The notes below the pieces were generated by a model. That model was given only the letters and a program-made list of their open reading frames with translations. It was not told where the DNA came from and ran no database searches. Of a stretch of DNA of 64,000 nt, positions 16,145-31,804 are shown in pieces. Source of the stretch: Dechloromonas sp. Its GTDB lineage: Bacteria; Pseudomonadota; Gammaproteobacteria; Burkholderiales; Rhodocyclaceae. Where the stretch lies: the NCBI GenBank assembly GCA_016790815.1, contig JAEUOG010000013.1, positions 18,155 through 82,154 on the forward strand, read 5' to 3'. Position numbers and translations under genes: made by a program. Position 1 is the stretch's first letter, and every line of letters starts with the position of its first letter.

Positions 16145-16170
16145 AGCCACGGAGCACCGGGCAGCGGACA

Positions 16171-16206
16171 TTCCATTCCTAGCCGGTTTGCCGGTTGACC
16201 GTGGAA
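16171..16206 (-). repeat. Dispersed repeat copy 3
   Basis: On the minus strand reads TTCCACGGTCAACCGGCAAA then CCGGCTAGGAATGGAA, a somewhat diverged copy 27 bases after the stop of the cysteine-patterned gene. It is part of the segment duplicated at 31549-31747. Confidence 0.75.
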
Positions 16207-16290
16207 ATGCTGCCCGACTATTCCAAGCGCTGAAGGATCGAACACTTGCCCGACGATTGCATCATGGCAAATCGGTGCAACTGGGCATTT

Positions 16291-17085
16291 TCAATGCACC
16301 CATTGCCCGACCAGCGGCACCACCATGACCCCCAACCCGATCAAGGCTGATTGCAGCGCAAAGTTGCTGCGCTGGCGGTGCAGTAGCGGCAGCAGATCGG
16401 CCACCGCAATGTAGATGAAACTGGCGGCAGCGATAGTCAGGACGTAAGGCAGGACGTGCTCGGCACCATCCAGCGCAAAGTAGCCGAGCAGGCCACCAAG
16501 GACCGAGGTCAGGCTGGAGGCGGCATTTGCCAGGAATGCCTTGCTCCGGCTCCAGCCAGCGTTGAGCAGGAGGATGAAATCGCCCAGCTCCTGCGGAATT
16601 TCATGGGCGACGACGGCCAGCGTCGTGGTTACACCCAGCATCGGGTCGGCCAGAAAGGCGGCGGCGATCAGTAGACCATCGACGAAGTTGTGGAAGGCGT
16701 CGCCGATCAGGATCAGCGGGGCGGCGACTTCGCCATGCGGTTTGCCTTCGCTAGCTTCACAGCCAGCGTGTGAATGGCGCCACAGGGCAAGGCGTTCAAG
16801 GGCGAAGAAGCCCAACAGACCAGCCAGTAAGACGGCGAACAAGTTGGTTGCCGGGGTATTGTGGTCATGACCCGCATGCTCAGCCAACTCGACGTGTTGC
16901 GGCAATGAGGCAAATGCCTCGGGCAGGATGTCGAGCAGGGCTGAGGAGAGCATCACGCCCGCCGAAAACGCCACAAGCGTCGCGGTGGCCTGCCGCGAGA
17001 GCCGAAAAGCCAGCCCGGCTGCAGCCACCATGCTCAGTAAGCCGCCGAGCAGGGTAGCCAGAACAATCATCGTCAAAACAGTCAT
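16291..17085 (-). CDS. ZIP-family metal permease
   Basis: Inner-membrane zinc (or related divalent metal) importer of the ZIP family. 264 residues, eight hydrophobic segments with a histidine-bearing loop (EHAGHDHNT) between segments 3 and 4. The metal site motifs of helices 4 and 5 are present as GDAFHNFVDG and HEIPQELGD. It is the last gene of the leftward zinc island and its start overlaps the stop of the DUF3299 gene by four bases. Confidence 0.92.
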   Translation of the reverse strand: MTVLTMIVLATLLGGLLSMVAAAGLAFRLSRQATATLVAFSAGVMLSSALLDILPEAFASLPQHVELAEHAGHDHNTPATNLFAVLLAGLLGFFALERLALWRHSHAGCEASEGKPHGEVAAPLILIGDAFHNFVDGLLIAAAFLADPMLGVTTTLAVVAHEIPQELGDFILLLNAGWSRSKAFLANAASSLTSVLGGLLGYFALDGAEHVLPYVLTIAAASFIYIAVADLLPLLHRQRSNFALQSALIGLGVMVVPLVGQWVH

Positions 17086-17657
17086 TTCATTCCCTTTGGT
17101 AATCCGTAAGCATCGAGCCGTTCTCCAATCATCCGGTAGCCATAAATGCCCAGGCTGCTGTCGCCACGCTGCAGACTGAGCGTGCCGCTGACCCAGAAGG
17201 TATCCATCATTTTCATGCCTTCCGCCGGCTTTTTCAGAATGACATGGATGATCTGGTTGGCTGGCGGTGGTGGCGTGTGAATGCAGGCACCGAAATACGG
17301 CACGAGCAGCAGTTCAAATACAGCATCACCCTTGCGCTCAAGCGGTACGACAAAGCCAGCGAGCTTGACCTTTTTGCCATTCAACGAAGACTCAACAGGC
17401 GCCTCAGCCCAGGCGGCTTTCATTTTTTCCAGCGCTTCGATGGCTTTGGGGTCGCTGTCCTTGAGTCGGTTGAGCTTCAACCCTTTGAAGCCGGCCATCG
17501 GATCCCAGCCTTTCGGGATCAGGTCTTCCCACTCAATTTCTTGGTAGTTGAGCGCCGGACTTGCCTTGCGCGGCGTCAGGCGCTCGCCGACTTGATAGTC
17601 AGCCGCCACTGCGGAGCCGAGCAAGGCAAGTAGCAGGAGGGGAATCAAAAGGCGCAT
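17082..17657 (-). CDS. DUF3299 periplasmic protein of the zinc cluster
   Basis: 191 residues with a signal peptide (MRLLIPLLLLALLGSAVAA). The mature protein has the DUF3299 stretches VKLAGFVVPLE, LLLVPYFGACIHTPPPPANQ and FWVSGTL. The conserved cysteine/histidine pair in ACIHTPPPP could bind metal (inference). DUF3299 proteins recur beside LolDE-like ABC genes and DUF2796 in zinc-regulated clusters, as here. Confidence 0.85.
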   Translation of the reverse strand: MRLLIPLLLLALLGSAVAADYQVGERLTPRKASPALNYQEIEWEDLIPKGWDPMAGFKGLKLNRLKDSDPKAIEALEKMKAAWAEAPVESSLNGKKVKLAGFVVPLERKGDAVFELLLVPYFGACIHTPPPPANQIIHVILKKPAEGMKMMDTFWVSGTLSLQRGDSSLGIYGYRMIGERLDAYGLPKGMK

Positions 17658-17670
17658 CGTGGGTAAACTT

Positions 17671-18933
17671 TCATAAACGGGGAATCAGGCCGTCGGCCAG
17701 CGATAGCCGATAGGCACGCCAGGCCGGCCACAGACTGACCAGCAGGCTGGCGGCGAAAATGCCGGCGAGCAGGCGCAGTTCGCCGGGCGAAACGGCCAAC
17801 GGCAGCGTCGATAGGCCGAACCGGGCGGCGAGCCAGGGGCCGCCAAGCCAGGCGGCAACACTTACCACCGCCAGACTGAGCGCCACGCCGAGCAGCGTGA
17901 CGAACAGGCTTTCGAGCACCAGCAGGAACACGATGTGGCGTGGCCCGGCACCGACCGAGCGCAGCACGGCCAGTTCGCGCCGCCGCTCGTTGAGGCTGGC
18001 CAGCATGACCGCCGCCAGCCCGGCCAGGCCAACGGCAAAAACCAGCCAGGAAATGCCGAGCAAGGCCTTTTCGACAACGCCGACGGTCTGCCACAACTGG
18101 TCGAGGGCGACGCCGGGCAGCACGGCAAGCAGCGGTTCGCCGCGATAGTCGGCTATCTTGCGCTGCAGCCGGAAGACGGCGCTGCGCTGATGCAGGCCGA
18201 GCAGGAAGGCGGTGATGGTCTTTGGCTGCAGGTCGAACTTGCTGACCATATCGGCCGGGATGGCCACACCCGGAATCGGTGCGCCGCCCTGCCAGTCAAG
18301 GTGGATGGCCTCGATGGCGGCGAGGCTGACGTGCACCCGGCGGTCTACCGGCGTGCCGGTCGGCGCCAGGATGCCAACCACGGTGAAAGGCTTGTCGGCA
18401 TGCGCCAGACCCGGCAAGGGGCCGCTGCCGTGGCTGAGGGTGATGGATTCGCCAAGTTGGTAGCCGAGTTTCGCCGCGACCTCGGCACCGATGACGGCGT
18501 CGAACAGGCCGTTGAAGGGCTGGCCGGCCGTGAAGCGCAGCGGCTGGCGCTCGCCGTAGCGATAGTGGTCGAAATAGGCCGGCGTCGTGCCAAGTACCGG
18601 GAAGCCCCGATGCGAGTCGCCGAGCGCCAGCGGCACGCTCCAGGCCACGGCCGGGTCGGCGGCAATGGCCTGGTAGCTCTGCCAGCCGACGTTGTTGCTC
18701 GCCTCGCCGACATTGAAGACGGCATAGAGCACCAGTTGCAGCGGGCTGCCGCGAGCGCCGACGATGAGGTCGGCACCGGAGACCGATTGGGCGAAACCGT
18801 CGCGCGCCGCCTGGCGAATGCGCTCGACCGAGAGCAGCAGCGTCACGGACAGGGTGATGGCGAGCAAGGTCAGGCCGAGCGTCAGGCGGCGGTTCCAGGC
18901 GCTTTTCAGGGCGATGTGGAGCAGCGGTTTCAT
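17671..18933 (-). CDS. FtsX/LolE-like ABC transporter permease of the zinc cluster
   Basis: 420-residue permease of the MacB/LolE fold: one N-terminal membrane helix (about 18-38), a large periplasmic domain (about 40-270), and three C-terminal helices in the FtsX domain (LVFAVGLAGLAAVMLASLNERRRELAVLRSVGA). It pairs with the ATPase encoded immediately upstream (four-base overlap). Members of this fold extract or move lipoproteins or other envelope substrates by mechanotransmission and are not classic solute channels. The zinc setting suggests a role in moving a zinc-linked envelope component; the substrate is unknown. Confidence 0.88.
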   Translation of the reverse strand: MKPLLHIALKSAWNRRLTLGLTLLAITLSVTLLLSVERIRQAARDGFAQSVSGADLIVGARGSPLQLVLYAVFNVGEASNNVGWQSYQAIAADPAVAWSVPLALGDSHRGFPVLGTTPAYFDHYRYGERQPLRFTAGQPFNGLFDAVIGAEVAAKLGYQLGESITLSHGSGPLPGLAHADKPFTVVGILAPTGTPVDRRVHVSLAAIEAIHLDWQGGAPIPGVAIPADMVSKFDLQPKTITAFLLGLHQRSAVFRLQRKIADYRGEPLLAVLPGVALDQLWQTVGVVEKALLGISWLVFAVGLAGLAAVMLASLNERRRELAVLRSVGAGPRHIVFLLVLESLFVTLLGVALSLAVVSVAAWLGGPWLAARFGLSTLPLAVSPGELRLLAGIFAASLLVSLWPAWRAYRLSLADGLIPRL

Positions 18934-19598
18934 GGGGCGAGCGCCAGACTATGGTCGAAGTGCGTCGCCAGCCGCAGATCGTGGCTGACGAAGACGACAG
19001 CGCTGCCGGCCCGTCTGGCCTCGCTCAGCAGCAGTTCGACGAAGGCGGCCTGACGTTCGGCATCGAGGGCCGAGGTCGGCTCGTCGGCGATCAGGATTTC
19101 CGGCTGGCCGATCAGTGCCCGTGCGGCGGCTACGCGCTGCTGCTGGCCCACGGATAATTCCGCCGCCGGTCTGCCGAGCAAGGCCGGGTCGAGGTCGAGT
19201 GCCGCCAGCAGGCGGCGGGCCTCGGCTTCCGGCTCGCCGACGCGCTTGGCCCGCTGGGCGGAAAAGCGGCACGGCAGCAGCACGTTGTCGAGCACCGACA
19301 GGTAGGGGATCAGGTTGAACTGCTGGAAGATGAAGCCGAGGTGATCGGCGCGGAAGGCATCGCGCCGACTGGCCGACAGCTGAGAAAAAGGCTGGTCAAG
19401 TAGTTCGATGTGCCCGGCTTGCGGTACCAGCACGCCACCGATCAAGTTGAGCAGCGTGCTTTTTCCGCAGCCACTCGGGCCATACAAAAACAGGCTGTTT
19501 TTCCGGTTGACCGCAAGATTTGGCAGCCGGAGGCAAAAGCTGTCGTCACCCGGCCAGCGGAATTCGAGATCGCGAACTAGGAGTGCCGGTGTGCTCAT
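18930..19598 (-). CDS. LolD-like ABC transporter ATPase of the zinc cluster
   Basis: 222-residue ATPase with Walker A GPSGCGKST, Q-loop FIFQQFN, signature LSVGQQQRVAAARAL, Walker B ILIADEPTSALD and H-loop VSHD. The ATG at 19598 is chosen; a TTG at 19610 would add four residues and overlap the previous gene. The segment LAVNRKNSLFLYGPSG just before Walker A is encoded by a sequence matching the dispersed repeat core (19496-19515 on this strand). It lies one base after the zrgA-like gene. Confidence 0.9.
   Translation of the reverse strand: MSTPALLVRDLEFRWPGDDSFCLRLPNLAVNRKNSLFLYGPSGCGKSTLLNLIGGVLVPQAGHIELLDQPFSQLSASRRDAFRADHLGFIFQQFNLIPYLSVLDNVLLPCRFSAQRAKRVGEPEAEARRLLAALDLDPALLGRPAAELSVGQQQRVAAARALIGQPEILIADEPTSALDAERQAAFVELLLSEARRAGSAVVFVSHDLRLATHFDHSLALAP
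19496..19515 (-). repeat. Short match to the dispersed repeat core inside the ATPase gene
   Basis: CTTGCGGTCAACCGGAAAAA on the minus strand matches the core exactly apart from the first bases, but the right half is absent. It could be a true fragment or chance. Confidence 0.35.
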
Positions 19599-19599
19599 C

Positions 19600-20097
19600 T
19601 CACCAGGCAAAACGTGGTTGTGCTGCTGTCAGGCGGCCGGATTTCTGGCCGCTCGGGCCAACGAATTCAACAGTGATTCGCTTGAGTCGGGGAAATTCGC
19701 CAAACAGTCGGGTGCTGATATCGCGCAAGGCTGAGGGTTTGGCGCACTGCCAGCGGTACTCGGCATCAAGGTCGAGGTGGCCGTCGCCAGGCTTGGCAGC
19801 CAAAACAGGCGATTCGATCTGCGGCGCCAGGGCAGTGCATTCACCTTCCCGGGTAATCTGGAACAGGCGATCGGGTTGCTCCAGAATGCTCTTCATGGCC
19901 TGGACTGCCTGCTTCTCAGCCGCAGTGCGTGGAACACGTTCAAAACCGAGCAGGCCATCGAGCGGCGATTCAAGATGAATGGCGAGGACATTGCCATCGA
20001 TTGTGATCTCCAGCTTGGCCTCGCCGTGGACGTGGGCGGGGGCAGAAAGCACAGGCAAACTCAGGATCAGACCGAGTAGCAGGACTAATGAGCGCAT
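19600..20097 (-). CDS. ZrgA-type (DUF2796) periplasmic zinc-uptake protein
   Basis: 165 residues with a signal peptide (MRSLVLLLGLILSLPVLSAP) directly followed by AHVHGEAKLEITIDGN, the DUF2796 opening with two histidines at the mature N-terminus. A later histidine/glutamate-poor C half includes RWQCAKPSALRDIS. A DUF2796 protein (ZrgA) is part of the Zur-controlled ZrgABCDE zinc-uptake system described in Vibrio cholerae. The order here (DUF2796, ATPase, permease, DUF3299, ZIP) is compatible with a five-gene system of that kind. I cannot verify the one-to-one match. Confidence 0.85.
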   Translation of the reverse strand: MRSLVLLLGLILSLPVLSAPAHVHGEAKLEITIDGNVLAIHLESPLDGLLGFERVPRTAAEKQAVQAMKSILEQPDRLFQITREGECTALAPQIESPVLAAKPGDGHLDLDAEYRWQCAKPSALRDISTRLFGEFPRLKRITVEFVGPSGQKSGRLTAAQPRFAW

Positions 20098-20171
20098 AAA
20101 AGACTCCTCAAAAACTTTTTCGAACCGGATGATGAATCGGGAAGAAATAGACATCAGCATAATTGGCCACC

Positions 20172-20990
20172 TCACTGATGCTTCGCTTGCCAGCGCGCCT
20201 TCGTTTCGCTGACCAGAAAAAGCAAGGCAGTTGCCAGCACCATGGTCGCGCCGGCTGGCCAGTCCAGTTCGTAAGCGAGCCACAGACCAGCCGTTCCGGA
20301 TGCCGCAGCCCAAAGTACGGCGCGCCGCATCATGCTGCCGACGGACGGAGCGTGCCAGGCCATGGCTGCCGGCAGAGTCAATAACGCGATGACCAGGATC
20401 AGACCGGCAACCTGGATCAGCAGAACGACGGTTAGCGCCACCAGAACGAGTAATAGCAGACGCAGCGCATCGACAGGAATCCCGCGCAGTTGGGCAAACT
20501 CCTCGTCAAAGGCCGCAGCGGTCAGGGCCGGAAACAAAGCGGTGACGACGAGCAGGACGAGAGCATCAAGGCAGAGCATCCAAAGCAGTTGCTCGTGGCC
20601 GACCATCAGGATATTGCCGAACAGGTAAGTCATCAGGTCGGGGTTCTGGCCAGGTGCCTTGGCGATCATGATCAAGCCCGCCGCCATGCCAACGGACCAA
20701 AGCGCCGATATCAGCACCTCTTCGTTATGGCGGCGATGCAAGGTCAGGCGCCACAAGAGGAAGGCCATCGTGACTGCGGCCAGCACGGCGCCCAGCATCG
20801 GCGAAAAGCCAAGCAGGTAGGCGACCCCCATGCCGGCCAAGACGCCATGGGCGATGCCACCGGCAAGAAAGGCGATCCGCTTGAGCACGACAAAGCTGCC
20901 GATGACGCCGCAGGCCAGGGAGGCCAGCAGGGTTGCGGCCAGCGCGTGCTGCAGAAAGACCTGGCTGAGCAGGCTGCTCCAGAAACTCAT
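20172..20990 (-). CDS. znuB: Zinc ABC transporter permease
   Basis: Membrane subunit of the high-affinity zinc importer. 272 residues, about eight hydrophobic helices, opening MSFWSSLLSQVFLQHALAAT. GIAHGVLAGMGVAYLLG and FGNILMVGHEQLLW are family stretches. The start at 20990 gives a four-base overlap with znuC. An in-frame extension to 21107 lies inside znuC and is not used. Confidence 0.93.
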   Translation of the reverse strand: MSFWSSLLSQVFLQHALAATLLASLACGVIGSFVVLKRIAFLAGGIAHGVLAGMGVAYLLGFSPMLGAVLAAVTMAFLLWRLTLHRRHNEEVLISALWSVGMAAGLIMIAKAPGQNPDLMTYLFGNILMVGHEQLLWMLCLDALVLLVVTALFPALTAAAFDEEFAQLRGIPVDALRLLLLVLVALTVVLLIQVAGLILVIALLTLPAAMAWHAPSVGSMMRRAVLWAAASGTAGLWLAYELDWPAGATMVLATALLFLVSETKARWQAKHQ

Positions 20991-21736
20991 GCCAATCTCC
21001 TGTCCGGCCGGTGATCGATGACACGCACCGGGTAACCGTAAAGCGCCGCTAGCGTTTCCGCCGAAACATCGACGGCCTGATGACTGCACAGGCTGCGATT
21101 GAGGCACCAGACGGTGCGGGCGTAGCGGGTAGTCAGGCCGAGATCGTGCGAGACGACCAGTATGGTCATACGCCGGTTGAGTTCGGCGAGTAGATCGAAG
21201 AGTGCTTCCTGGCCGGAGGGATCGATATTGGCTGTCGGCTCATCGAGAATCAGCAGTTGCGGACCGACGGCAAGGGCTCGGGCAATCAGTGCCCGCTGGA
21301 CTTCCCCGCCGGACAGGCTGTCGATGCGCCGTTTGCTTAAATGGGCGATACCGCAAGCTTCAAGTGACTGCGTGATAGCTGCTTCCTGGCTTGCCGTGCG
21401 TCGGCGCCACATCGGCCAGCCATCGGCGAGCGTGCCATGCGCCACCAGTTCGCCGACACAGACTGGAAAGCGCGTATCGAAACGCCCGCTTTGCGGCACG
21501 TAGCCAGCGCGCAAACGTCCGATTCGCGGCGGCTCGCCAAACAGGCTGACTTCGCCGGCATCGGCTTCAAGCAGACCAAGCAGAACCTTGAGCAGCGTTG
21601 TCTTTCCCGCGCCATTCGGACCGACCATGGCAACAAAGTCACCGGCAGACAGCCGGACATTGACATCATCGAGCACCTTGTAGCCGTTACGGTACAAGCT
21701 AATCCCGGTGCACTCCATGACGGGCATGAGGCTCAT
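20987..21736 (-). CDS. znuC: Zinc ABC transporter ATPase
   Basis: ATPase of the zinc importer. 249 residues with Walker [13 protein letters not shown], signature LSGGEVQRALIARAL, Walker B LLILDEPTANID and H-loop VSHDLG. The start ATG overlaps the znuA stop (ATGA). Methionines at residues 4 and 7 are alternative starts. It is most similar in layout to ZnuC/ZurA-type ATPases, and its neighbours make zinc the likely substrate rather than manganese. Confidence 0.93.
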   Translation of the reverse strand: MSLMPVMECTGISLYRNGYKVLDDVNVRLSAGDFVAMVGPNGAGKTTLLKVLLGLLEADAGEVSLFGEPPRIGRLRAGYVPQSGRFDTRFPVCVGELVAHGTLADGWPMWRRRTASQEAAITQSLEACGIAHLSKRRIDSLSGGEVQRALIARALAVGPQLLILDEPTANIDPSGQEALFDLLAELNRRMTILVVSHDLGLTTRYARTVWCLNRSLCSHQAVDVSAETLAALYGYPVRVIDHRPDRRLA

Positions 21737-22596
21737 TGCAGATTGCGGGCGAAGATGTCAGCGACACGGCGCAGATTGTCGATATAGTCCGGCGCCAAAG
21801 GGTCGACGGAAACCACCTCGCCGCCAATTGCTTGAGCGATGGTCTCGGCCTCCTTCTGCGAGAATTGCGGCTGGACGAAAACAACCCGCACGCCACTCTG
21901 GCGAGCGCCTTCAATGACCATTTGCAGGGTTCGCGGGCCGGGCTCTTTCCAGCCGGCTTCAACCGGCATCTGGCGGAGTCCGTAGGCATCGGCAAAGTAG
22001 CCCCAGGTGGGGTGGTAAATCATGAAATTGCGCCCCTTCTTGTCGGCCAGGCGGCTACGAATATCGCCATCCAGCTTCTTGAGATCAGCCATGAAACTGG
22101 CGTGATTGGCTTCAAACTCAGCCTTGGCCTCGGGGCGTAGCGCGATTAGCTCATCACGGATGCGGTCAGCCATACGCATCACTAACGGGGGGGCCAGCCA
22201 GACGTGCGGATCAAGCCCGCCGCCAGCACCCAGCGCCGCACCGGGCGGGAGATCGACCGGACGCAGGGTCAAGCCGTCACGCAGATCAACCACTTTGGCT
22301 GCCGGTGCCAACTGCGCCAGGCGTGGTAACCAGGCATTCTCAAAAGGCACGCCAATGCGCAAGACCAAGCGGCTGGCGGCAACCGCCTCCATCTGCTTCG
22401 GTGATGGTTCGTAGGTGGCCGGACTCTTGCCCGGCGGCACCAGGACAATGGTCTTTACCTGTTGGCCGCCAATCCGTTCAACAAAAAACTGCTGCGGCAA
22501 GAGGCTGACCGTCACCGGTAGCGGCGGCTCTGCGCGGGCAAAGTTGCAGAACCCCAGCAGCACGGACAGCAATAAAGTGCGGGTCAAAATCATCAT
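21733..22596 (-). CDS. znuA: Zinc ABC transporter substrate-binding protein, first ligand histidine absent
   Basis: Periplasmic metal-binding protein of cluster A-I. 287 residues; the ribosome site AAGGAG precedes tandem ATGs at 22596 and 22593. Signal peptide MMILTRTLLLSVLLGFCNFA. Of the four usual metal ligands, the histidine in DPHVWLAP, the one in IYHPTWGYFADAYGL and the aspartate in SVDPLAPDYI are present. The first one, normally in PHxYEPSP, is alanine in SPATYEPSP. The His-rich loop of many ZnuA proteins is also missing. It may use a three-residue site or bind a metal complex. Confidence 0.9.
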   Translation of the reverse strand: MMILTRTLLLSVLLGFCNFARAEPPLPVTVSLLPQQFFVERIGGQQVKTIVLVPPGKSPATYEPSPKQMEAVAASRLVLRIGVPFENAWLPRLAQLAPAAKVVDLRDGLTLRPVDLPPGAALGAGGGLDPHVWLAPPLVMRMADRIRDELIALRPEAKAEFEANHASFMADLKKLDGDIRSRLADKKGRNFMIYHPTWGYFADAYGLRQMPVEAGWKEPGPRTLQMVIEGARQSGVRVVFVQPQFSQKEAETIAQAIGGEVVSVDPLAPDYIDNLRRVADIFARNLQ

Positions 22597-22636
22597 TAGC
22601 TCCTTGAGAAAACAAGCTGATCGTGCGGATGGACTT

Positions 22637-23290
22637 TTATTCCCACCCGGCATCCATCGCCAGCAAGACCCGTGGAGCCTGCTCGGCAGCGATGGCAGGT
22701 GAGCGATGAACGATGCCCCGCCCGTCATTGCCTTGCCACAGGCTGCCCTTGAGTAGGGCGACGGTGAAGGGTGGAATGGTCTCGATCCGGTGCCCGGCCA
22801 GCAACAAGCCAGAAGTCTCATCAGGCTGGCCGCCAGAGGCTGCACCAAGGAAGCGGCGATCGACGCAAGCATCCTCCACCCATTCCGTTCCCGGACCGCG
22901 ATAGGTGCACAAAAGTCGGATGCCGACGCGATCAACATGCAGGCGCGGACACATGGCCTTGCCGAGCACTTCGAGGCGATAGCCAATACTCGTCGCATCA
23001 AGCAATTCACCAAGGATTTCGGCCAACAGGGCGATGTCGGTGGCCAGCGCATCGCGCCCGTCACCTGGCGGCAGGCGGCCAAGGTCAGGCAGTTGCCCCG
23101 TGGCAAGGGTCTGGCGCAGACCACTACCCAAATTGCCGGCGTGGACAGCCAGCCAGTCGGCAATGACCGGATTTGGGGAGCGGTGCCATTGGGCCAACTG
23201 GGTTTCGGGATCAAAGATGCGCGTCAGGCCAAGCGGATCGTCGGCGATAGCGCAACAGCGGGTTGCATTGCGGGGTAACGGGGCGTTCAT
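22637..23290 (-). CDS. DUF1826 family protein
   Basis: 217-residue cytoplasmic protein, recognised by LHVDRVGIRLLCTYRGPGTEWV and by GSLWQGNDGRGIVHRSP. The histidine/aspartate/arginine pattern of this first motif resembles 2OG-Fe(II) oxygenase-type folds, but no function is established. DUF1826 genes are recurrent neighbours of COG0523 GTPases and zinc-uptake genes, which fits here. It starts 89 bases after the TonB receptor gene; the gap holds a dispersed repeat. Confidence 0.82.
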   Translation of the reverse strand: MNAPLPRNATRCCAIADDPLGLTRIFDPETQLAQWHRSPNPVIADWLAVHAGNLGSGLRQTLATGQLPDLGRLPPGDGRDALATDIALLAEILGELLDATSIGYRLEVLGKAMCPRLHVDRVGIRLLCTYRGPGTEWVEDACVDRRFLGAASGGQPDETSGLLLAGHRIETIPPFTVALLKGSLWQGNDGRGIVHRSPAIAAEQAPRVLLAMDAGWE

Positions 23291-23305
23291 TGGAAAATTC
23301 CTTTT

Positions 23306-23342
23306 GCTACGGTCAACCGAAAAAATCGGCCAAAAATGAAAT
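23306..23342 (+). repeat. Dispersed repeat copy 4
   Basis: GCTACGGTCAACCGAAAAAA then TCGGCCAAAAATGAAAT, lying between the TonB receptor stop and the DUF1826 start, in the opposite orientation to the operon. Confidence 0.85.
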
Positions 23343-23379
23343 CGCCTGGTTGCGGCAGTAGCATGGCAGTCGTCTGAAA

Positions 23380-25431: not shown

Positions 25432-25466
25432 GGTTCGTCCGAAACGTCTAAAAGAAATTAAAAAGG

Positions 25467-26597
25467 TCAGAAATAACTCATCCAGCGCTGCCGCCCTTCC
25501 TGCTTGAGCCGGCCAAACCAGAGGCAGGGCCGGTAAAGGCAGGCGAGTACGGGCAAGGCCATGGCCCAGATCATCCAGACCTGGGAAAAGCCGAAGCGCT
25601 CTCCCTGGTTGGGGCCGTAGAACGCGGCAAACAGCAGATAGATCAGGTGCAGCAGATAGATGTGCGCGATGTAGAAAAACATCGGCACGCGCCCGATCAG
25701 GGCCAACCGGCGTCCGCCCTGGGTGCGCTCCAGCCCGGCTAGGGCAAGCAAGCCGATGCCCAGGGTGAGCAGGATGAAATGCAGCGACGGCGGGTACTTG
25801 GTGATGTTGAGGAAGGACATCAGGCTCGCCAGCGCCGTGCTCCCAGCCTGCCAGGCATGGTCGCCATAGACATTGAGCAGGCGGAGCACCACGAAAGCGC
25901 CCAGGGCGGCCAGGCCCATCGCCAGCAGCCGGCGCTGCCGGGTTTCGGCCGATGCGCCACGCGCATACAGCGGCCCGAGCAGGTAACCGAAGAGGATGAC
26001 GCCGATCCACGGCAGGACGGGGTAAGAGGTGCGTACCGCGATGCCGCCGCCCAGTTCGATCACGCGGCGGTCATGCAGGATGGCCCACGGAATGAATCCC
26101 GCCTCGCCGCTGGCGAAATGCACGCCATCAAGCGCGTTGTGGCCGAAAACGAGCATAACCACGAGCAGGATCTGAGCCGCACGCGGCAGCCAGAGCAGCG
26201 CCGAAAGCGCCAGCATGGCCAGGCCGATCGCCCAGATCACCTGCAGATAGATCATCTTCGGCATGAAGCTGAAGGACCAGCCAAAACCGACCACAGTCAG
26301 TTCCAGCACGATCAGCAACAGCCCACGCTTGGCGAGATAGGCGGCGGTCTCCTGCAAGCTGCGCCCGCTGCCGTACAACCAGGCCCCCAGACCGGTCAAC
26401 AGGACAAAAACCGGCGCGCAGACGTGGCTGGTCAGGCGCGTGAAAAACAGTTCCGGTGGCGTTGAGGCAATGCTCATCGGGTCGCCGACCTGCAGATGGA
26501 GATAGAAAAACTCGCGCACGTGATCGACCAGCATCAGCACCATGACGGCGCCGCGCAGTCGGTCGATGCTGCCAAGACGTTGGGAGGTCGAATTCAT
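25467..26597 (-). CDS. DUF1624 / heparan-alpha-glucosaminide acetyltransferase-like membrane protein
   Basis: 376-residue polytopic membrane protein with about ten helices. The first loop RLGSIDRLRGAVMVLMLVDHVREFF has the DUF1624 pattern, with arginine/aspartate/histidine residues that in the human homologue take part in transmembrane acetyl transfer. The substrate in bacteria is unknown. It lies 10 bases after the carbonic anhydrase-like gene and 35 before the TonB receptor, so it belongs to the same transcript. Its link to zinc is unexplained. Confidence 0.85.
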   Translation of the reverse strand: MNSTSQRLGSIDRLRGAVMVLMLVDHVREFFYLHLQVGDPMSIASTPPELFFTRLTSHVCAPVFVLLTGLGAWLYGSGRSLQETAAYLAKRGLLLIVLELTVVGFGWSFSFMPKMIYLQVIWAIGLAMLALSALLWLPRAAQILLVVMLVFGHNALDGVHFASGEAGFIPWAILHDRRVIELGGGIAVRTSYPVLPWIGVILFGYLLGPLYARGASAETRQRRLLAMGLAALGAFVVLRLLNVYGDHAWQAGSTALASLMSFLNITKYPPSLHFILLTLGIGLLALAGLERTQGGRRLALIGRVPMFFYIAHIYLLHLIYLLFAAFYGPNQGERFGFSQVWMIWAMALPVLACLYRPCLWFGRLKQEGRQRWMSYF

Positions 26598-26607
26598 GCG
26601 GCGCGAC

Positions 26608-27168
26608 TCAAAACTCGTTCTGTAGGCGTTTGTAGCCCTGCACCAGTTCGTGATTGGTACGTACGACGTCCTCGGAAAACTCCGTGGCTTGAGCCGTGAC
26701 ACGGGGCATGGCGGCAAGGTCGGTACGCGGGCCGATACGTTCGGTGGATGGGACATAGAAGCCGGCCGGCAACTGGGCGCCATCGACCACTGCGTTGTGG
26801 CGGACAACGCAGCCATCACCGACGGTGCAGTTGAACAGCACACTGTTGAAGCCGATGAAGACATTGTTGCCAACCACGCAGGGGCCATGGACGATGGAGC
26901 GATGGGCGATCGAGGTGTGCTCGCCGATATCGACCAGGGCGCCGGATTTGGAATGGATGACGACGCCGTCCTGAATATTTGAGTGGGCGCGGATGCGGAT
27001 CGGTTCGAGTTCGCCGGTGGCATCGACCTCGTCGGCACGGATTACGGCATAGGGGCCGACGAAGACATTTTCTTCGATGATGACCTTGCCGCAGATGATG
27101 GCAGTCTGGTCAACGTAGGCGGATTCGTGGATTTGCGGCAGGTCGCCGCGCGGGTTTTTGCGGATCAT
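26608..27168 (-). CDS. Gamma-carbonic anhydrase-like hexapeptide protein
   Basis: 186 residues of left-handed beta-helix (hexapeptide) repeats. The three metal-ligand histidines of gamma-carbonic anhydrases are present with the right spacing: one in VVIHSKSG and two, five residues apart, in SIAHRSIVHGP. Activity on CO2 is therefore possible, with zinc or iron in the site. A carbonic anhydrase paralog under Zur control is a known theme in zinc-starvation clusters, where it may replace a zinc-hungry main enzyme. It lies three bases after the QueD paralog. Confidence 0.87.
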   Translation of the reverse strand: MIRKNPRGDLPQIHESAYVDQTAIICGKVIIEENVFVGPYAVIRADEVDATGELEPIRIRAHSNIQDGVVIHSKSGALVDIGEHTSIAHRSIVHGPCVVGNNVFIGFNSVLFNCTVGDGCVVRHNAVVDGAQLPAGFYVPSTERIGPRTDLAAMPRVTAQATEFSEDVVRTNHELVQGYKRLQNEF

Positions 27169-27171
27169 GGA

Positions 27172-27753
27172 TCAGACTCGGAGGGGATTGGCGAATCGCT
27201 CGCCGCGTTTGAGCTTGTCGAACAGCTCTGGATCGGGCCAGTCGTTGCGGATGGCTTCGGAAAATTCGATGTCGTCGAGCGCGATCAGGCCCATGAGTGG
27301 GTTGATCGCATCCTCGCGGAAGCACTGGGCGTAGCCGGTTTCGGTTTCATGGACGATGACCGAATGCAGGCGCACGTCGGCTTCGCCGTTGGTCATTTCG
27401 GTGAGTTCGAGCAGGCGGTCGATCAGCACGAAGAACAGCCGCGAGAACTGCTCGGCGCTGGGCGAGACGGGAATGCGTATCCAGCGCTCGGAAAAGCGCT
27501 GGCAGGCGGCGATGTAGTCCGGGTCGTCGCCAGACCAGATGGCCACGGCGTGGTCGAAGGCGTCGATCAGCGTGCGCGGGCCGTGCTTGAGCAGGCCGAA
27601 GTCGTAAACCATCTGGCCGTGATCCAGCGCATGCGCTTCGAGCAGCAGTTCGACCTTATACGAGTGGCCATGGATCGAGTGCGAGCAGCGCCGCGTGCTG
27701 CAACCGCGCACGATGTGGGCATTCTCGAACTTGAACAGCTTGCGGATCAGCAT
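27172..27753 (-). CDS. QueD/6-pyruvoyl-tetrahydropterin synthase paralog
   Basis: 193-residue member of the zinc-dependent PTPS family, which makes 6-carboxytetrahydropterin for queuosine. Metal ligands are the histidine in ENAHIVRGC and the pair in IHGHSYKVE; the cysteine in RGC or RRC fits the catalytic position, and DFGLLK and FDHA follow. Longer than E. coli QueD (about 120 residues) with a C-terminal extension. Paralogs called QueD2 occur in Zur regulons next to COG0523 genes. The start at 27753 overlaps the end of the GTPase gene by seven bases. Confidence 0.87.
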   Translation of the reverse strand: MLIRKLFKFENAHIVRGCSTRRCSHSIHGHSYKVELLLEAHALDHGQMVYDFGLLKHGPRTLIDAFDHAVAIWSGDDPDYIAACQRFSERWIRIPVSPSAEQFSRLFFVLIDRLLELTEMTNGEADVRLHSVIVHETETGYAQCFREDAINPLMGLIALDDIEFSEAIRNDWPDPELFDKLKRGERFANPLRV

Positions 27754-28832
27754 GCCACTTTCGACTCGCCGACGTCGCGCGCGTCGCAGAACATGACAAA
27801 GGCCTGCTCGATCATCGACTGCGGCAGATCGCGGACGATGAAGACGAGGCGGCTTTTGCGGTCGTTGTAGGGTGCTTCGGCCGGCCAGTCGTCGATGCGC
27901 GCGTAGGGGTACATGACGTGCTGGACGCACTGGATCACCCGCGGTTTGTGGTCGCCAACGACATTGAGCAGGCCCTTGATGCGCAGGATGCGGTCGCCCA
28001 TGGTGTCGAGCAGCGTGGCCACGGCATCGGCGAAGAAGACCCATTGCAGCGGCTGGTCGAAGGTCAGGGCGAAGCTGTAGACGTGCGCGTCGTGGCGGTC
28101 GACATCGTGGTGATGGTGATGGCCATGCGCCTTGCGCCGTTCCTCGCGCACCTTTTCCTCGGCCAGCCAGCCGGCGACGTCCGGCGTCTTGCTGCCCGGG
28201 TCATAGAGGCCGCAGTCAGTCAGCGAGGCGACTGCGACTTCACCGCGCCGGACGTAAATTTGCGCTGCGGAGGGGTTGAGACGGGTCAGGGTTTGGCTAA
28301 GTTCGGCCAGTTGCTCCGCTGTCGCGAGGTCGCACTTGCTGAGCAGCAGGCGGTCGGCCATGGCGATCTGCTTGACTGGCTCGGCATGCGCCGCCAGTTG
28401 CTGCAAGGCATGCGTTGCATCGACAACGGTGACCACGCCATCGATGCGGAAGCGCTCGGCGACGAAGAAGTCTTCCATCAGCGTGTAGATCACCGGCGCC
28501 GGATCGGCCAGCCCGGTCGTTTCGATGATGACGCGGCTGATCGGCTTCAGCTCGCGGCGCATGCAGCGCATGAACAGTTCGGTCAGGCTGCGTGTCAGAT
28601 CGCCGCGTACCGTGCAGCAGATGCAGCCGGAATCGAGCAGGATCAGGTCTTCATCGATTTTGGTCACCAAATGATGGTCGACCGCAACACTGCCGAATTC
28701 ATTGATCAGCACGGCGGCTGTAGCCATTTCCGGCTGGCTGAGGAGATGGTTGAGCAGGGTTGTCTTGCCGGCACCGAGAAAACCGGTGAGCAGGGTGACC
28801 GGGATGCGACGTTCAATATCTTGTGATGGCAT
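27747..28832 (-). CDS. COG0523 (CobW-like) GTPase with His-rich segment
   Basis: Putative zinc metallochaperone GTPase. 361 residues: Walker [14 protein letters not shown], switch with the metal-binding CICCTV (C-x-C-C), Walker B-like IIETTGLADP and SKCD as the guanine motif. A histidine-rich loop (HGHHHHHDVDRHDAH, about 237-251) lies between the GTPase and C-terminal domains and would hold several zinc ions. It is the second COG0523 protein of the island and differs from the first by this loop. It lies eight bases after the DksA paralog. Confidence 0.93.
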   Translation of the reverse strand: MPSQDIERRIPVTLLTGFLGAGKTTLLNHLLSQPEMATAAVLINEFGSVAVDHHLVTKIDEDLILLDSGCICCTVRGDLTRSLTELFMRCMRRELKPISRVIIETTGLADPAPVIYTLMEDFFVAERFRIDGVVTVVDATHALQQLAAHAEPVKQIAMADRLLLSKCDLATAEQLAELSQTLTRLNPSAAQIYVRRGEVAVASLTDCGLYDPGSKTPDVAGWLAEEKVREERRKAHGHHHHHDVDRHDAHVYSFALTFDQPLQWVFFADAVATLLDTMGDRILRIKGLLNVVGDHKPRVIQCVQHVMYPYARIDDWPAEAPYNDRKSRLVFIVRDLPQSMIEQAFVMFCDARDVGESKVAC

Positions 28833-28840
28833 GCAGGGCC

Positions 28841-29263
28841 TTATCCGCCAAACTGGCGCTTGCGTTGTTCATGACGCTCCTGCGCCTCCAGAGTCAGGCT
28901 CGCCGTAGAGCGGGCCAACAGGCGTGCAATGCCGATCGGCTCGCCTGTTTCCTCGCACCAGCCGTAGGTGCCGGCTTCTATACGCTTTAGGGCCTGGGCG
29001 ATTTTCTTGAGCAGCTTGCGCTCGCGGTCACGCACGCGTAGTTCCAGCGTGTGCTCTTCCTCGGCACTGGCCCGATCTGTAGGATCTGGAGCCGCTTCGG
29101 TTTCCTGCAGGTGATGTGAGGTTGACTCCGCCGCATCGCGCAAGGTTTTTTCCTCGTCGAGCAGGCGCTGCTTGAAGGTCAGCAACTGAGCCTCGGACAT
29201 ATACTCTGAGTCCGGCGCGGCCAGCAATTCAGCATCGCTCAACAATTTGATTGCCTTGCTCAC
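28841..29263 (-). CDS. dksA2: DksA paralog lacking the zinc-finger cysteines
   Basis: 140-residue RNA polymerase-binding stringent-response factor. The coiled-coil region (LTFKQRLLDEEKTLRDA, then the acidic tip with DPTDRASAEEE) is intact. In the C-terminal globule only the first of the four zinc cysteines remains (GWCEETGEPIGI); the other three positions are T, T and A (CEET, SLTLEA). It should fold without zinc, as P. aeruginosa DksA2 does, and stand in for DksA when zinc is short. It lies within the Zur-type operon, three bases after the GTPase gene. Confidence 0.92.
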   Translation of the reverse strand: MSKAIKLLSDAELLAAPDSEYMSEAQLLTFKQRLLDEEKTLRDAAESTSHHLQETEAAPDPTDRASAEEEHTLELRVRDRERKLLKKIAQALKRIEAGTYGWCEETGEPIGIARLLARSTASLTLEAQERHEQRKRQFGG

Positions 29264-29266
29264 GAT

Positions 29267-30499
29267 TCAATCCTCCTCGTCTTCTTCAATAGACCAGAGG
29301 GGAAACGGGTCTTCATAACGCACCCAGGCTTCCGGCCCCGCTGCCAGTTCGGCATCGTTCAGCAGGCAGGCATCGAAGGACTGGCGCAACGCAGCTTCGT
29401 CCATCTCGATGCCGATCATCACCAGTTCCTGCTGTGCATCGCCATAAGGCTCCACCCAGCGCTCCAGGATGATCTGGCGGTTTTCCTCGTCCTGCGGCCA
29501 TTCCGCCTCAGGTACGGCAACCCACCACAGGCCGCCCAGCTCGTGCCGGGTCACCGGGCCGGCCTGCGACCAGCTGCCGACCAGACCGGGGCGCGAAGCG
29601 AGCCAGAAATAGCCTTTCGAGCGGATGACGCCCGGCCATTCCTGGTTGATCCACTCGTAAAAGCGCGCGGGATGGAAAGGCCGGCGAGCGTGATAGACGA
29701 AGCTCGAAATGCCGTATTCCTCGGTTTCCGGAATGTGTTCGCCGCGCAGTTCCTGCAACCAGCCCGGCGCATCCGCCGCCTGCTCGAAATCGAAGCGGTT
29801 TGTATTGAGGATGCGTTCGAGCGGCACCTGGCTGAATTGGGCATGAACGATGTCGGCACGTGGATTGAGCGCGCGCAGGATGGCTTCGAGACGGGCGACG
29901 TCTTCCGGCGGCAACAGATCGGTCTTGTTGAGGACGATGACGTCACAGAATTCGACCTGCTCGACCAGCAGATTGACCACGGTGCGCTGGTCGTCTTCGC
30001 CCAGGCTTTCGCCGCGGTCGCCGATGTAATCCTGCGAGCTATAGTCGTGCAGGAAGTTGAAGCCGTCCACCACCGTGACCATGGTATCCAGCCGCGAAAT
30101 GTCCGACAGGCTGGTGCCGTCCTCGTCGCGAAAAGTAAATGTCTCGGCCACCGGCATTGGCTCGGAGATGCCTGTCGATTCAATGAGCAGGTAATCGAAA
30201 CGCTTTTCCTTGGCCAGCCGGGCGATTTCGATCAGCAGGTCTTCGCGCAGCGTGCAACAGATGCAACCGTTGCTCATCTCGACCATCTTCTCCTCGGCGC
30301 GCGACAGCTCGGCTCCCCCCTCGGCGACCAGCCGGGCATCGATGTTGACCTCGGACATGTCATTGACGATGACTGCCACGCGCAAACCCTGGCGATTGTT
30401 CAGGACATGGTTGAGCAGCGTGGTCTTGCCGGCACCGAGAAAGCCGGACAAGACAGTGACCGGGAGGCGGGGATCAGTTTTGTTCAGTTGGTTGGTCAT
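29267..30499 (-). CDS. zigA: COG0523 GTPase of the ZigA/YciC type
   Basis: 410-residue putative zinc chaperone GTPase. Walker [14 protein letters not shown], metal motif [21 protein letters not shown] characteristic of the ZigA/YciC subgroup, and NKTDLL as the guanine motif. The C-terminal domain has [11 protein letters not shown] and a very acidic end (SIEEDEED). There is no His-rich loop, unlike the second COG0523 protein here. The start at 30499 is two bases after the HisI paralog. Members of this subgroup are the classic Zur targets. Confidence 0.95.
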
Positions 30500-30501
30500 T
30501 A

Positions 30502-30924
30502 TTATTTCTGATGGATAGGGGGTTGAATCGGGGCCGAGATCACTTCCACACGTTCGCCCCTGACCGCGTTGTAAAAGCAGCTGGGTCGCCCGGTATGGCA
30601 AGCCCCGCCGAGCTGGTCGACGAGCAGCAGGATTGCGTCGCCATCGCAATCGAAGCGGGTTTCGACTACCCGTTGCCGACAGCCGGAGGTTTCGCCCTTG
30701 CGCCACAAACTCTGGCGCGAACGCGACCAGTAGCAGGCAAAACCGGTTGCCAGTGTTTCTTCGATGGCGGCACGATTCATCCAGGCCAGCATCAACACTT
30801 CGCGGGTATCGAACTGCTGGGCGATGGCCGCGACCAGACCTTGCTGATCGAAGGGTAATTCGGCCAGCACGTCGGAAAGCGGCAAGCTCGCGCCGATGGG
30901 GGCGCCTTCAAGTCGGGGTAACAT
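30502..30924 (-). CDS. hisI2: HisI paralog (phosphoribosyl-AMP cyclohydrolase)
   Basis: Third-step histidine biosynthesis enzyme family, zinc-dependent. About 140 residues. Motifs [27 protein letters not shown] and [11 protein letters not shown] contain the three cysteines and aspartates of the metal sites. The residue after ETSG is cysteine, which is uncommon. The start is placed at 30924 because ATGs at 30942 and 30951 lie at or inside the presumed operator and transcription start. A HisI paralog next to zigA is a known Zur-regulon feature. It is the first gene of the leftward zinc island. Confidence 0.9.
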
Positions 30925-30944
30925 AGGGGCTTCTGGATACATGG

Positions 30945-30968
30945 AATGCAATGTTATAACATTGCATT
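30945..30968. promoter_or_regulatory. Perfect 24-bp palindrome, probable Zur box
   Basis: The half-site AATGCAATGTTA is followed by its exact reverse complement. The centre contains GTTATAAC, which gives a TATAAC -10 box on both strands, so bound Zur would block both hisI2 (left) and zur (right). The sequence resembles known Zur boxes, which are AT-rich dyads with TGTTATANNATAACA-like cores. I see no second copy upstream of znuA, zrgA or the TonB gene. Confidence 0.85.
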
Positions 30969-30989
30969 TGTACCACCAAGGCCGAACTT

Positions 30990-31472
30990 ATGAGACCCGC
31001 TGTTTCCGACGTTGAAAATCCGCTCGCCGATTGTGAAAACACGCAGGCCCTTGACCGGGCAGAAGCCTCTTGCCGGGCCCGGGGAGCCAGTCTGACGGCG
31101 ATCCGCCGCGAGGTTCTGGATCTGCTTTACCGCAGCCCGACCGGCGTCAAGGCCTACGATCTATTGGCCCGGATCAAGGAAGCCCGGCCCGGTGCTTCGC
31201 CGCCCACCGTTTATCGTGCTCTGGATTTTTTGATTGATCAGGGTCTGGCACACAAGATCGGCCGGATGAATCTCTTCGTTGCCTGCCGACATGCTTCCCA
31301 CCAAATCCCAAGCCTGTTTCTGGTCTGCCCGAAATGCAGTGGCGTGACCGAATTGCAGGAGCAATCGGTGATGAGTGCGCTATCGACCAGTCTGGCCGCG
31401 GCTGGACATCGTCTGGAAAGTCCGGAGGTAGAAATCAGCGCAATTTGCCCGAAGTGTGTTGGCGCAGGATAG
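30990..31472 (+). CDS. zur: Zinc uptake regulator, Fur family
   Basis: 160-residue repressor that binds DNA when zinc is bound. A winged helix-turn-helix occupies about residues 30-100 (AIRREVLDLLYRSPTGVKAYD, SPPTVYRALDFLIDQGLAHKI). The dimerisation domain has the two structural-zinc pairs CPKC (in LFLVCPKCSG and ICPKCVG) and a sensory region ACRHASHQ. The missing His-rich HHDH-type Fur motif and the setting among zinc genes favour Zur over Fur. It is divergent from the island it presumably controls and shares its operator, hence is likely autoregulated. Confidence 0.94.
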   Translation: MRPAVSDVENPLADCENTQALDRAEASCRARGASLTAIRREVLDLLYRSPTGVKAYDLLARIKEARPGASPPTVYRALDFLIDQGLAHKIGRMNLFVACRHASHQIPSLFLVCPKCSGVTELQEQSVMSALSTSLAAAGHRLESPEVEISAICPKCVGAG

Positions 31473-31548
31473 ATGTGCAATATTCAAGTGCTCGAAGCTC
31501 GTCGCTGTGCTTCGCCCTTGTCACGGGCTATCGGCGAAGGATCGCTAC

Positions 31549-31747
31549 CGACTGCGGCAAGACTGCCCGACCAGGCACGCGGCGACATCCACCAGAAAGC
31601 CCGCGAAGCCTGCACGGATAAATTCGGCCCGGAACACAAGGCCTGGCTGCGTGAGCAGTTCGGGGTCAAATAGCGCCAAGGAGTGCCGGGAAACCGGCAT
31701 TTCATTTTAGGGCCAGTTTTTCGGTTGACCGTAGTAGCGCTGCCTCC
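31549..31747 (+). pseudogene. Duplicated 3' end of the cysteine-patterned gene plus downstream repeat
   Basis: This stretch is strongly similar to 16021-16217: the codons for QARxDxHQKAREACxDKFGP, a stop at the same place, the bases after the stop and the dispersed repeat all recur. Here two cysteine codons are changed (QARCD to QARGD, KACLRE to KAWLRE) and the upstream two thirds of the gene are missing. An open frame from 31473 joins it to unrelated sequence (MCNIQVLEARR). I read it as a dead fragment, though a short protein is not excluded. Confidence 0.75.
31699..31734 (-). repeat. Dispersed repeat copy 5
   Basis: On the minus strand CTACGGTCAACCGAAAAACT then GGCCCTAAAATGAAAT. It is the tail of the duplicated fragment and corresponds to copy 3. 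Confidence 0.82.
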
Positions 31748-31796
31748 CCGTCTCTCAGGTGTTAGCCTGAAAGATGGGGAGGCAGCAGCCATTTTT
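31739..31796. terminator. Strong stem-loop terminator between convergent units
   Basis: GCTGCCTCCCC (31739-31749) pairs perfectly with GGGGAGGCAGC (31776-31786). A second TCAGG/CCTGA stem lies inside, and a T tract (ATTTTT) follows at 31791-31796. It ends rightward transcription from zur and the gene fragment; leftward transcription from the phosphorelay operon also meets it. Confidence 0.8.
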
Positions 31797-31804
31797 CGAA
31801 TGCT

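What the first reader, a model, noticed from the sequence alone, without database searches (positions are those of the whole stretch)
16291..31472. A 14-kb zinc-starvation island that looks like one long Zur operon
Fifteen to sixteen leftward genes from hisI2 to a ZIP permease have gaps of 0-90 bases or overlaps, and only one Zur-type dyad is visible, at its head. It joins uptake (znuABC, ZrgA-like set, TonB receptor, ZIP), allocation (two COG0523 GTPases) and sparing paralogs (HisI, QueD, DksA, gamma-carbonic anhydrase). Such paralogs are known individually from Zur regulons (COG0523 literature). Having nearly all of them in one contiguous unit is unusual.
Basis: partly seen in the sequence, partly recalled or inferred. 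Interest (0 to 1): 0.8.

Follow-up and report, generated by a model that had tools for sequence, protein, structure and literature searches.

The report
Portable zinc-starvation operon with its repressor
A bacterium carries seventeen zinc-shortage genes in one tight row behind a single switch and beside the gene for the repressor that should work it, and relatives that carry or lack the same row in different places suggest that it is inherited sideways as a ready-made package.

Summary
Seventeen leftward genes (hisI2 to ZIP, 30924-16291) follow one another with gaps of -7 to 89 bases, divergent from a real zur (30990-31472). The 65-base gap between them holds a perfect 24-base palindrome (30945-30968), shared by several relatives and the only convincing site of its kind in the held genome (76% complete). 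Best reading: one Zur-repressed, autoregulated zinc-starvation operon; co-transcription is untested. Parts and clustering are known (Haas 2009; Cupriavidus cobW1 operon), but 17 families in one run compare with at most 11 in 108 other loci examined.

New points. (1) The unit looks horizontally acquired: none of the 20 congeners listed in one survey has ZigA; another congener has a shorter version at another locus, and each genome shows the other's site without it. Shared DNA ends at the zip stop and within 13 bases of the zur stop. (2) The window copy lies between 88% direct repeats of a neighbouring gene's 3' end. (3) DUF1826, a frequent ZigA neighbour of unknown function, is predicted to be an Fe(II)/2-oxoglutarate oxygenase. 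Correction: HisI2, QueD2 and the carbonic anhydrase keep their metal ligands; of the four paralogs only DksA2 has lost them. New variant of a known kind.

The parts
30945..30968 (.). Zur operator, perfect 24-base palindrome; 20 bases from the chosen hisI2 start, 21 from the zur start
30990..31472 (+). zur, divergent repressor gene
   Evidence: Pfam FUR; best PDB matches a Fur-family regulator 7dh7 E 6.8e-29 and the zinc uptake regulator 4mtd E 1.6e-24, PerR and Fur entries 1e-4 or weaker
30502..30924 (-). hisI2, phosphoribosyl-AMP cyclohydrolase paralog (start chosen by conservation; an upstream ATG at 30942 is possible)
29267..30499 (-). zigA, COG0523 zinc metallochaperone GTPase
   Evidence: NF038288, 693.2 bits, cut-off 600
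28841..29263 (-). dksA2, DksA paralog with 1 of 4 zinc cysteines
27747..28832 (-). second COG0523 GTPase with a His-rich stretch
   Evidence: cobW and CobW_C domains; stretch seen in the translation
27172..27753 (-). queD2, 6-carboxytetrahydropterin synthase paralog
   Evidence: PTPS; PDB 7v0f E 4.3e-80
26608..27168 (-). gamma-class carbonic anhydrase-like protein, three His aligned with those of Cam
25467..26597 (-). HGSNAT-type membrane protein, role unknown
   Evidence: PF07786; homolog, 46%, in the Undibacterium locus L020
23380..25431 (-). TonB-dependent outer-membrane receptor
   Evidence: Plug and barrel domains
22637..23290 (-). DUF1826 protein, predicted Fe(II)/2-oxoglutarate oxygenase fold
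   Evidence: PF08856; alignment A1; model pLDDT 91.3; fold hits
21733..22596 (-). znuA, zinc-binding protein
   Evidence: PF01297
20987..21736 (-). znuC, ATPase
   Evidence: ABC_tran
20172..20990 (-). znuB, permease
   Evidence: ABC-3
19600..20097 (-). zrgA, periplasmic zinc protein
   Evidence: Pfam ZrgA 3.5e-43
18930..19598 (-). zrgC-like ABC ATPase
   Evidence: ABC_tran
17671..18933 (-). zrgB-like FtsX/MacB permease
   Evidence: FtsX and MacB_PCD
17082..17657 (-). zrgE-like DUF3299 protein
   Evidence: PF11736; PDB 4hsp E 7.7e-26
16291..17085 (-). ZIP-family zinc permease, last gene
   Evidence: PF02535
16041..16177 (+). left copy of the flanking direct repeat (3' end of the psiF-like gene 15563-16144 and bases after it; 'psiF-like' is my reading, no Pfam match)
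31570..31706 (+). right copy of the flanking direct repeat (fragment of the same gene), 88% identical

Best explanation
This is a broad zinc-starvation programme built as one autoregulated, divergent Zur unit that entered this genome as a block. With zinc plentiful, zinc-loaded Zur binds the single palindrome between zur and hisI2 and blocks both promoters. When zinc falls Zur lets go and a transcript of about 14.6 kb is made. The products work in three layers: uptake (TonB receptor across the outer membrane; ZrgA with its ABC proteins, ZnuABC and ZIP across the inner membrane), allocation (two COG0523 GTPases) and replacement or back-up (DksA2 without its zinc finger; extra copies of HisI, QueD and a gamma carbonic anhydrase; a DUF1826 protein predicted to use iron). 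Shown by sequence: gene content, spacing, a palindrome shared with relatives, no second site in the held genome, a fragmentary copy of the neighbouring gene at the right edge, and reciprocal sites without the unit in two congeners. Inferred: co-transcription, zinc response, transfer as a block, and every function.
For: zur is nearest to Zur proteins of known structure. Of 10 relative loci printed, the 20-base box TGCAATGTTATAACATTGCA is exact in 5 and the 12-base core in 9; six of these loci had been found by the pattern itself, but four (L142, L143, L144, L202) were found by protein searches. The held genome has one convincing site. 14 of 16 junctions are 40 bases or less. Promoter-like sites 2 (expected 3.5) and terminator-like 17 (expected 14.1) over 15500-31900, none in the two larger gaps. 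Acquisition: ZigA in 27 of 395 family genomes, this one being the only carrier of its genus among them; 20 other congeners are listed without it, and the list is cut, so there may be more. In 16 loci of the psiF-like gene from 16 congeners the pilB-like gene adjoins it and no zinc gene follows within the fetched stretches, but for one weak TonB-receptor hit in L200. G405, same genus, has an 11-gene version plus zur on another contig, while the flanks of that version lie directly side by side in this genome at C35. Shared DNA runs only from 16291 to 31459.
Against: No expression data exist for this organism. The gaps of 74 and 89 bases could hold promoters that a sigma-70 consensus scan misses. 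The genome is a 76%-complete MAG, so other Zur sites may be missing. Not every related cluster has this box: of 13 loci fetched by ZigA or DUF1826 (L139-L151), 3 have the exact core at the head, 3 a version with 2 mismatches, 1 a version with 1 mismatch about 5 kb away, and 6 none. The island's G+C is like its surroundings (61.4% against 61.4% and 59.6%); no mobile-element gene was recognised beside it and no inverted ends above shuffles were found on it. ZrgA is only 51% identical between the two congeners, so parts were exchanged as well. A different sample of the genus did contain another carrier, G405, and a genome (G406) with a second HisI.
Confidence: 0.72

Rival explanations
1. A zinc gene cluster made of several transcription units: Zur controls hisI2-zigA and its near neighbours, while znuABC, zrg and zip have promoters of their own, perhaps in the 89- and 74-base gaps.
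For: The two larger gaps lie at or near places where gene content differs between the window and G405. Relatives assemble the same genes in other orders. An interspersed element lies in the 89-base gap.
Against: No second Zur site above background inside the operon (best -3.2) and no promoter-like site in the gaps. In G405 the same distal genes follow behind one box of the same sequence, with no other box within 2 mismatches in the stretch scanned (L009, same contig; gene order).
Confidence: 0.2
2. The operon is ancestral in the genus; most members lost it, and its different places in two members reflect chromosomal rearrangement rather than transfer.
For: Copies in the two congeners are similar: 9 of the 12 proteins compared, zur included, are 87-99% identical, the others 83, 82 and 51%. 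The G+C is normal.
Against: None of the 20 congeners listed has ZigA; each of the two carriers lacks the unit where the other has it (the G405 contig reaches only about 2.8 kb beyond the psiF-like gene); the right edge in the window is a patchwork of host gene fragments; ZigA is 92% identical to that of another genus, G018.
Confidence: 0.15
3. The operon in G405 moves as a transposon-like cassette with inverted ends and an 8-base target duplication, carrying no transposase.
For: ATTATAAT is present once at the site in this genome and at both edges of the G405 insert; both insert ends start with CTAGAG.
Against: The end similarity is only at the 99th percentile of shuffles (score 21; 46 of 4896 random pairs reach it). 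Similar margins recur in G201 around a different gene, so they may simply be the edges of a hotspot. The window copy shows no such ends.
Confidence: 0.12

Closest known systems
Zur-regulated COG0523 (yciC/zigA) gene clusters of Haas et al. 2009 (PMC2770081, passages read)
   Same: zur, znuABC, COG0523 genes and HisI, QueD, Cam and DksA paralogs were reported from such clusters, and DUF1826 is named in the legend of their cluster figure; HisI and QueD were noted to keep zinc ligands
   Different: Here 17 genes follow one operator in one run, with Zrg, ZIP, TonB receptor and an HGSNAT-type protein; transfer as a unit was not mentioned in the passages read, apart from one cluster on a Klebsiella plasmid
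cobW1 operon of Cupriavidus metallidurans (PMC11340326, passages read)
   Same: Zur-repressed operon with a COG0523 GTPase and paralogs of QueD and carbonic anhydrase
   Different: That promoter has two Zur sites and the operon holds CysS, AllB and FolE_IB2 genes; ZupT, CobW2 and CobW3 are further products of that regulon
ZrgABCDE of Vibrio (PMC9817125, passages read) and PA4063-PA4066 of Pseudomonas (PMC10393844, passages read; that PA4066 is a DUF3299 protein is recalled)
   Same: ZrgA, ABC ATPase, ABC permease and DUF3299 in a row
   Different: No DUF2607 (ZrgD) gene is in this operon, and the set is embedded in a longer one
zigA clusters on plasmids
   Same: ZigA homologs in 919 of 72,556 plasmid records at E<=1e-100, 556 of them Klebsiella
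   Different: Only one such plasmid cluster was looked at (L241): a Fur-family gene, zigA, a GTP-binding protein, a metal ABC transporter and a TonB receptor, with no sparing paralogs annotated

Membership tests
Zur | Fur family, nearest to Zur rather than Fur/PerR, with two CxxC pairs | tested here: met
Zur regulon | Zur box at the promoter, shared with relatives | tested here: met
   6 of 13 protein-fetched loci lack it
Zur regulon | zinc-dependent binding and repression | not testable with these tools
   needs binding and expression data
Single operon | tight same-strand spacing, no terminator- or promoter-like site in the larger gaps | tested here: met
Single operon | one transcript | not testable with these tools
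   needs RNA
ZigA | score over the NF038288 cut-off | tested here: met
   693.2 against 600
ZrgABCDE transporter | ZrgA, ATPase, permease and DUF3299 in a row | tested here: met
ZrgABCDE transporter | ZrgD (DUF2607) in the operon | tested here: not met
   none of the 17 proteins matches it in Pfam; not sought elsewhere in the genome
Zinc-free DksA2 | loss of the C4 zinc finger | tested here: met
   1 of 4 cysteines kept
Zinc-free HisI, QueD or carbonic anhydrase | loss of the zinc ligands | tested here: not met
   candidate ligands kept
Fe(II)/2OG oxygenase superfamily (DUF1826) | HxD...H...R pattern and matching fold | tested here: met
   H118, D120, H195, R207 invariant in 19 sequences; 50 listed fold hits belong to this superfamily by title or recall, TM-scores moderate
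Fe(II)/2OG oxygenase superfamily (DUF1826) | metal and 2OG binding, turnover | not testable with these tools
   needs protein
Genomic island | missing from most congeners, different sites in carriers | tested here: met
Genomic island | integrase or transposase | tested here: inconclusive
   the immediate neighbours are a pilB-like gene, a psiF-like gene (no Pfam match) and a histidine kinase; no ORF of 90 aa or more was listed in the G405 margins; the wider neighbourhood was not scanned for such genes

The most novel reading that the evidence does not exclude
A portable regulon: the host's entire Zur regulon (repressor, its only operator and all 17 targets) packed into one 15-kb unit that spreads sideways as a block, lands at unrelated sites in close relatives with edges at its first and last stop codons, and swaps transport or sparing modules behind a fixed zur-operator-hisI2-zigA head. 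One module, DUF1826, is an unrecognised iron- and 2-oxoglutarate-dependent oxygenase serving the zinc-starved cell.
Probability: 0.4. Interest if true: 0.65.

Novelty: new variant of a known kind. Interest (0 to 1): 0.5.

Why it matters
If the unit is really one transcript and moves as a block, a cell can gain a whole zinc-starvation response with its own switch in a single event. That makes it a natural test of how regulons are assembled and transferred, and a handy system in which each layer (uptake, allocation, replacement) can be removed separately. The DUF1826 prediction turns a protein of unknown function, found near ZigA in 21 of 80 named loci, into a testable enzyme.

Tried and rejected
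Internal Zur sites: none above background. Internal promoters and terminators: chance level. Inverted ends on the window copy: not above shuffles (score 24; mean of 300 shuffles 18, maximum 30). Transposon-like ends in G405: kept only as a weak rival, because the end similarity is modest and similar margins recur in G201 around another gene. A first shuffle test gave an odd maximum (56 against 38 observed) and was replaced. Plasmid search with the G405 margins: one 36-base match for the left, no match for the right. Family search with the left margin: 2 of 395 genomes. DUF1826 profile against PDB sequences: no match up to E 1. Foldseek TM-scores for DUF1826 are moderate (0.35-0.52 by query length) and rmsd high (about 6-11) in the 50 rows listed, so the fold class rests on those hits together with the conserved residues. 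A second aligner could not be used. Defence role for DUF1826 or the HGSNAT-type protein: no PADLOC match. Literature: a search for any 2 of DUF1624, zinc and Zur listed 10 papers, none holding DUF1624. DUF1826 occurs in 3 papers held; I saw passages of two and no biochemical function. A housekeeping DksA with a C4 finger was not found in the held genome, so that comparison is inconclusive; a housekeeping HisI is present (G000:C28).

Dropped or limited: one search counted 108 loci with at least one hit, from loci L001-L097, L132-L151 and L190-L209, after leaving out seven of the window's own region; they include loci fetched for other reasons (psiF-like gene, boxes) and this genome's housekeeping HisI. 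L009 and L202 are the same contig and both counted. Hits under 35% of query length were dropped. Most loci reach about 10 kb beyond ZigA at best and some contigs are short, so their counts are lower bounds. The window itself was not rescored there; its 17 is the gene list. One search examined 101 and 395 genomes of the family; G405 and G406 were not. Of 18 other genomes with a match to the psiF-like protein among 40, 16 were fetched. Of 21 DUF1826 sequences found in named loci, 18 went into alignment A1 with the window's own.

Names without a call: pilB-like, psiF-like, PIN-like and dusA-like are my reading of the translations; so is the statement that HxD...H...R marks 2OG oxygenases.
Full report
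What is there. The window lies in a metagenome-assembled genome (G000, 2.54 Mb, 76% complete). Seventeen genes run leftward from 30924 to 16291 and zur runs rightward from 30990. Junctions are -7 to 89 bases, 14 of 16 being 40 or less.

The switch. The 65-base gap between hisI2 and zur holds a perfect 24-base palindrome at 30945-30968, 20 and 21 bases from the two start codons. The HisI2 start at 30924 was chosen because relatives share it. A matrix scores the site 40.5, against 4.4 for the next site in 64 kb and 10.6 for the best of 20 shuffled windows. In the held genome the core occurs once exactly and never with one mismatch. Of 10 relative loci printed, 5 have the 20-base box exactly and 9 the 12-base core. 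Six of the 10 had been found by the pattern itself, so the independent cases are L142, L143, L144 and L202. Of 13 loci fetched by ZigA or DUF1826, 3 have the exact core at the head, 3 a two-mismatch version, 1 a one-mismatch version about 5 kb off, and 6 none. Nine of 101 family genomes have the 14-base core with at most one mismatch. The protein beside it is closest to Zur proteins. The likeliest mechanism is that zinc-loaded Zur blocks both promoters; this is inferred from the anatomy and known Zur biology.

One operon? Promoter-like and terminator-like patterns are at chance level and none lies in the two larger gaps. No second Zur site rises above background. This supports one transcript but does not prove it.

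What the genes do. Uptake: TonB receptor, ZnuABC, ZrgA with ABC ATPase, ABC permease and DUF3299, and ZIP. The Zrg set matches Vibrio ZrgA, ZrgC, ZrgB and ZrgE, which are induced under zinc limitation there (PMC9817125, passages). Allocation: ZigA (over the NCBIfam cut-off) and a second COG0523 protein. Paralogs: DksA2 keeps one of four zinc cysteines. HisI2 keeps the three cysteines shared with solved HisI and with this genome's other HisI, and has one more where that HisI has a histidine. QueD2 matches PDB 7v0f (E 4.3e-80) and keeps its His and Cys residues. The carbonic anhydrase keeps three His. So among these four only DksA2 is zinc-sparing by loss of ligands. Haas 2009 reported the same split and offered extra copies or another metal as explanations (PMC2770081, passages). 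From recall, not from a call, 7v0f is the Acinetobacter QueD2 and has been studied for metal retention.

DUF1826. Nineteen sequences share invariant H118, D120, H195 and R207, the pattern of Fe(II)/2-oxoglutarate oxygenases (recalled). AlphaFold gives mean pLDDT 91.3. Foldseek finds 252 solved chains at E<=0.001; the 50 listed belong to that superfamily by title or by what I recall of the names, ACC oxidase (which does not use 2-oxoglutarate) included. TM-scores are moderate, 0.35-0.52. DUF1826 was found near ZigA in 21 of 80 named loci. Three papers held mention it. One suggests succinylglutamate desuccinylase kinship and possible zinc dependence, which this model does not support; it also reports a Zur-regulated DUF1826 gene in Francisella (PMC5786701, passages).

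How unusual. In 108 other loci the largest number of these families in one same-strand run (3-kb gaps allowed) was 11, in G405, then 9, 8 and 8; nine loci had 6 or more, of which two are the same contig. Many of those loci are short, so these are lower bounds. Several related clusters keep a zur-operator-hisI2-zigA head and vary behind it: G018 has a threonyl-tRNA synthetase gene, G037 a CobN-like gene and another TonB receptor.

Acquisition. ZigA occurs in 27 of 395 family genomes; this genome is the only one of its genus among them, and 20 other congeners are listed without it (the list is cut). In another sample of 26, G405 and G406 also had a second HisI. G405 has the unit; G406's copy lies on a 5.5-kb contig with COG0523-like hits and no ZigA hit. 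The window unit sits between a pilB-like and psiF-like pair and a histidine kinase. In 16 loci of the psiF-like gene from 16 congeners the pilB-like gene adjoins it and the zinc genes are absent from the fetched stretches, but for one weak TonB-receptor hit in L200. In G396 the psiF-like gene is followed after about 155 bases by a kinase-like match. G405 has the unit on another contig, without dksA2, znuABC, the HGSNAT-type protein and the TonB receptor, and with a carbonic anhydrase cut to 108 residues; its own psiF-like locus lacks zinc genes for the 2.8 kb that the contig reaches. The cut fits a deletion of 23360-26847 in G405, so I infer that the window order is the older one there. The flanks of the G405 unit (L202 2747-3160 and 12543-13491) are side by side in this genome at C35: reciprocal empty sites. 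DNA similarity between the two copies starts at 16291 and ends at 31459, at the zip stop and 13 bases before the zur stop.

Edges. The window unit lies between two 137-base direct repeats, 88% identical, of the psiF-like 3' end. The sequence beyond the right copy resembles the empty site of G396 more than that beyond the left copy (alignment, judged by eye). A 62-base fragment 79% like part of the gene at 38286-39158 lies between zur and the right copy. How the unit entered is not settled; recombination with related DNA is my guess. In G405 the site shows an 8-base repeat and weakly similar inverted ends, but another congener, G201, has similar margins around an unrelated ATPase-like gene, so this is better called a hotspot for now.

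Verdict. I did not see transfer of such a unit described in the passages I read; the searches were made, of which I saw listings and the passages named above, so this is not a claim that it is absent from print. ZigA homologs on plasmids are common (919 records), and Zur-regulated genes on a Vibrio island are in print (PMC8248653, listing and abstract start only).

Noticed in passing
window 23307-23342, 31712-31744, weaker copy 16182-16214: A short interspersed element (about GGCCATTTTTCCGGTTGACCG) occurs at 18 places with at most 3 mismatches in this genome, control 0; matches to the operon's copy also lie in congeners. One copy is inside the operon, in the gap before DUF1826.
   Followed up: partly
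L202 3161-12543, L240 8380-11146, L235 1880-1900: The stretch between a PIN-like and a dusA-like gene (names by eye) is a hotspot: zinc operon in G405, a 651-residue HATPase protein in G201, empty here.
   Followed up: partly
window 31488-31549: A 62-base fragment 79% like part of the gene at 38286-39158 lies between zur and the psiF-like fragment.
   Followed up: partly
L202 8015-8341: In G405 the carbonic anhydrase is cut to 108 residues, next to an apparent deletion that took two further genes.
   Followed up: partly
G000: The Fur-family search found only this zur in the held genome, and no C4-type DksA was found; the genome is incomplete.
   Followed up: no
L134 4957-11178: In G037 the same operator heads a cluster with a CobN-like chelatase, a TonB receptor and YidD.
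   Followed up: no
L199, L207, L209: The psiF-like gene is present in two neighbouring copies in several congeners.
   Followed up: no
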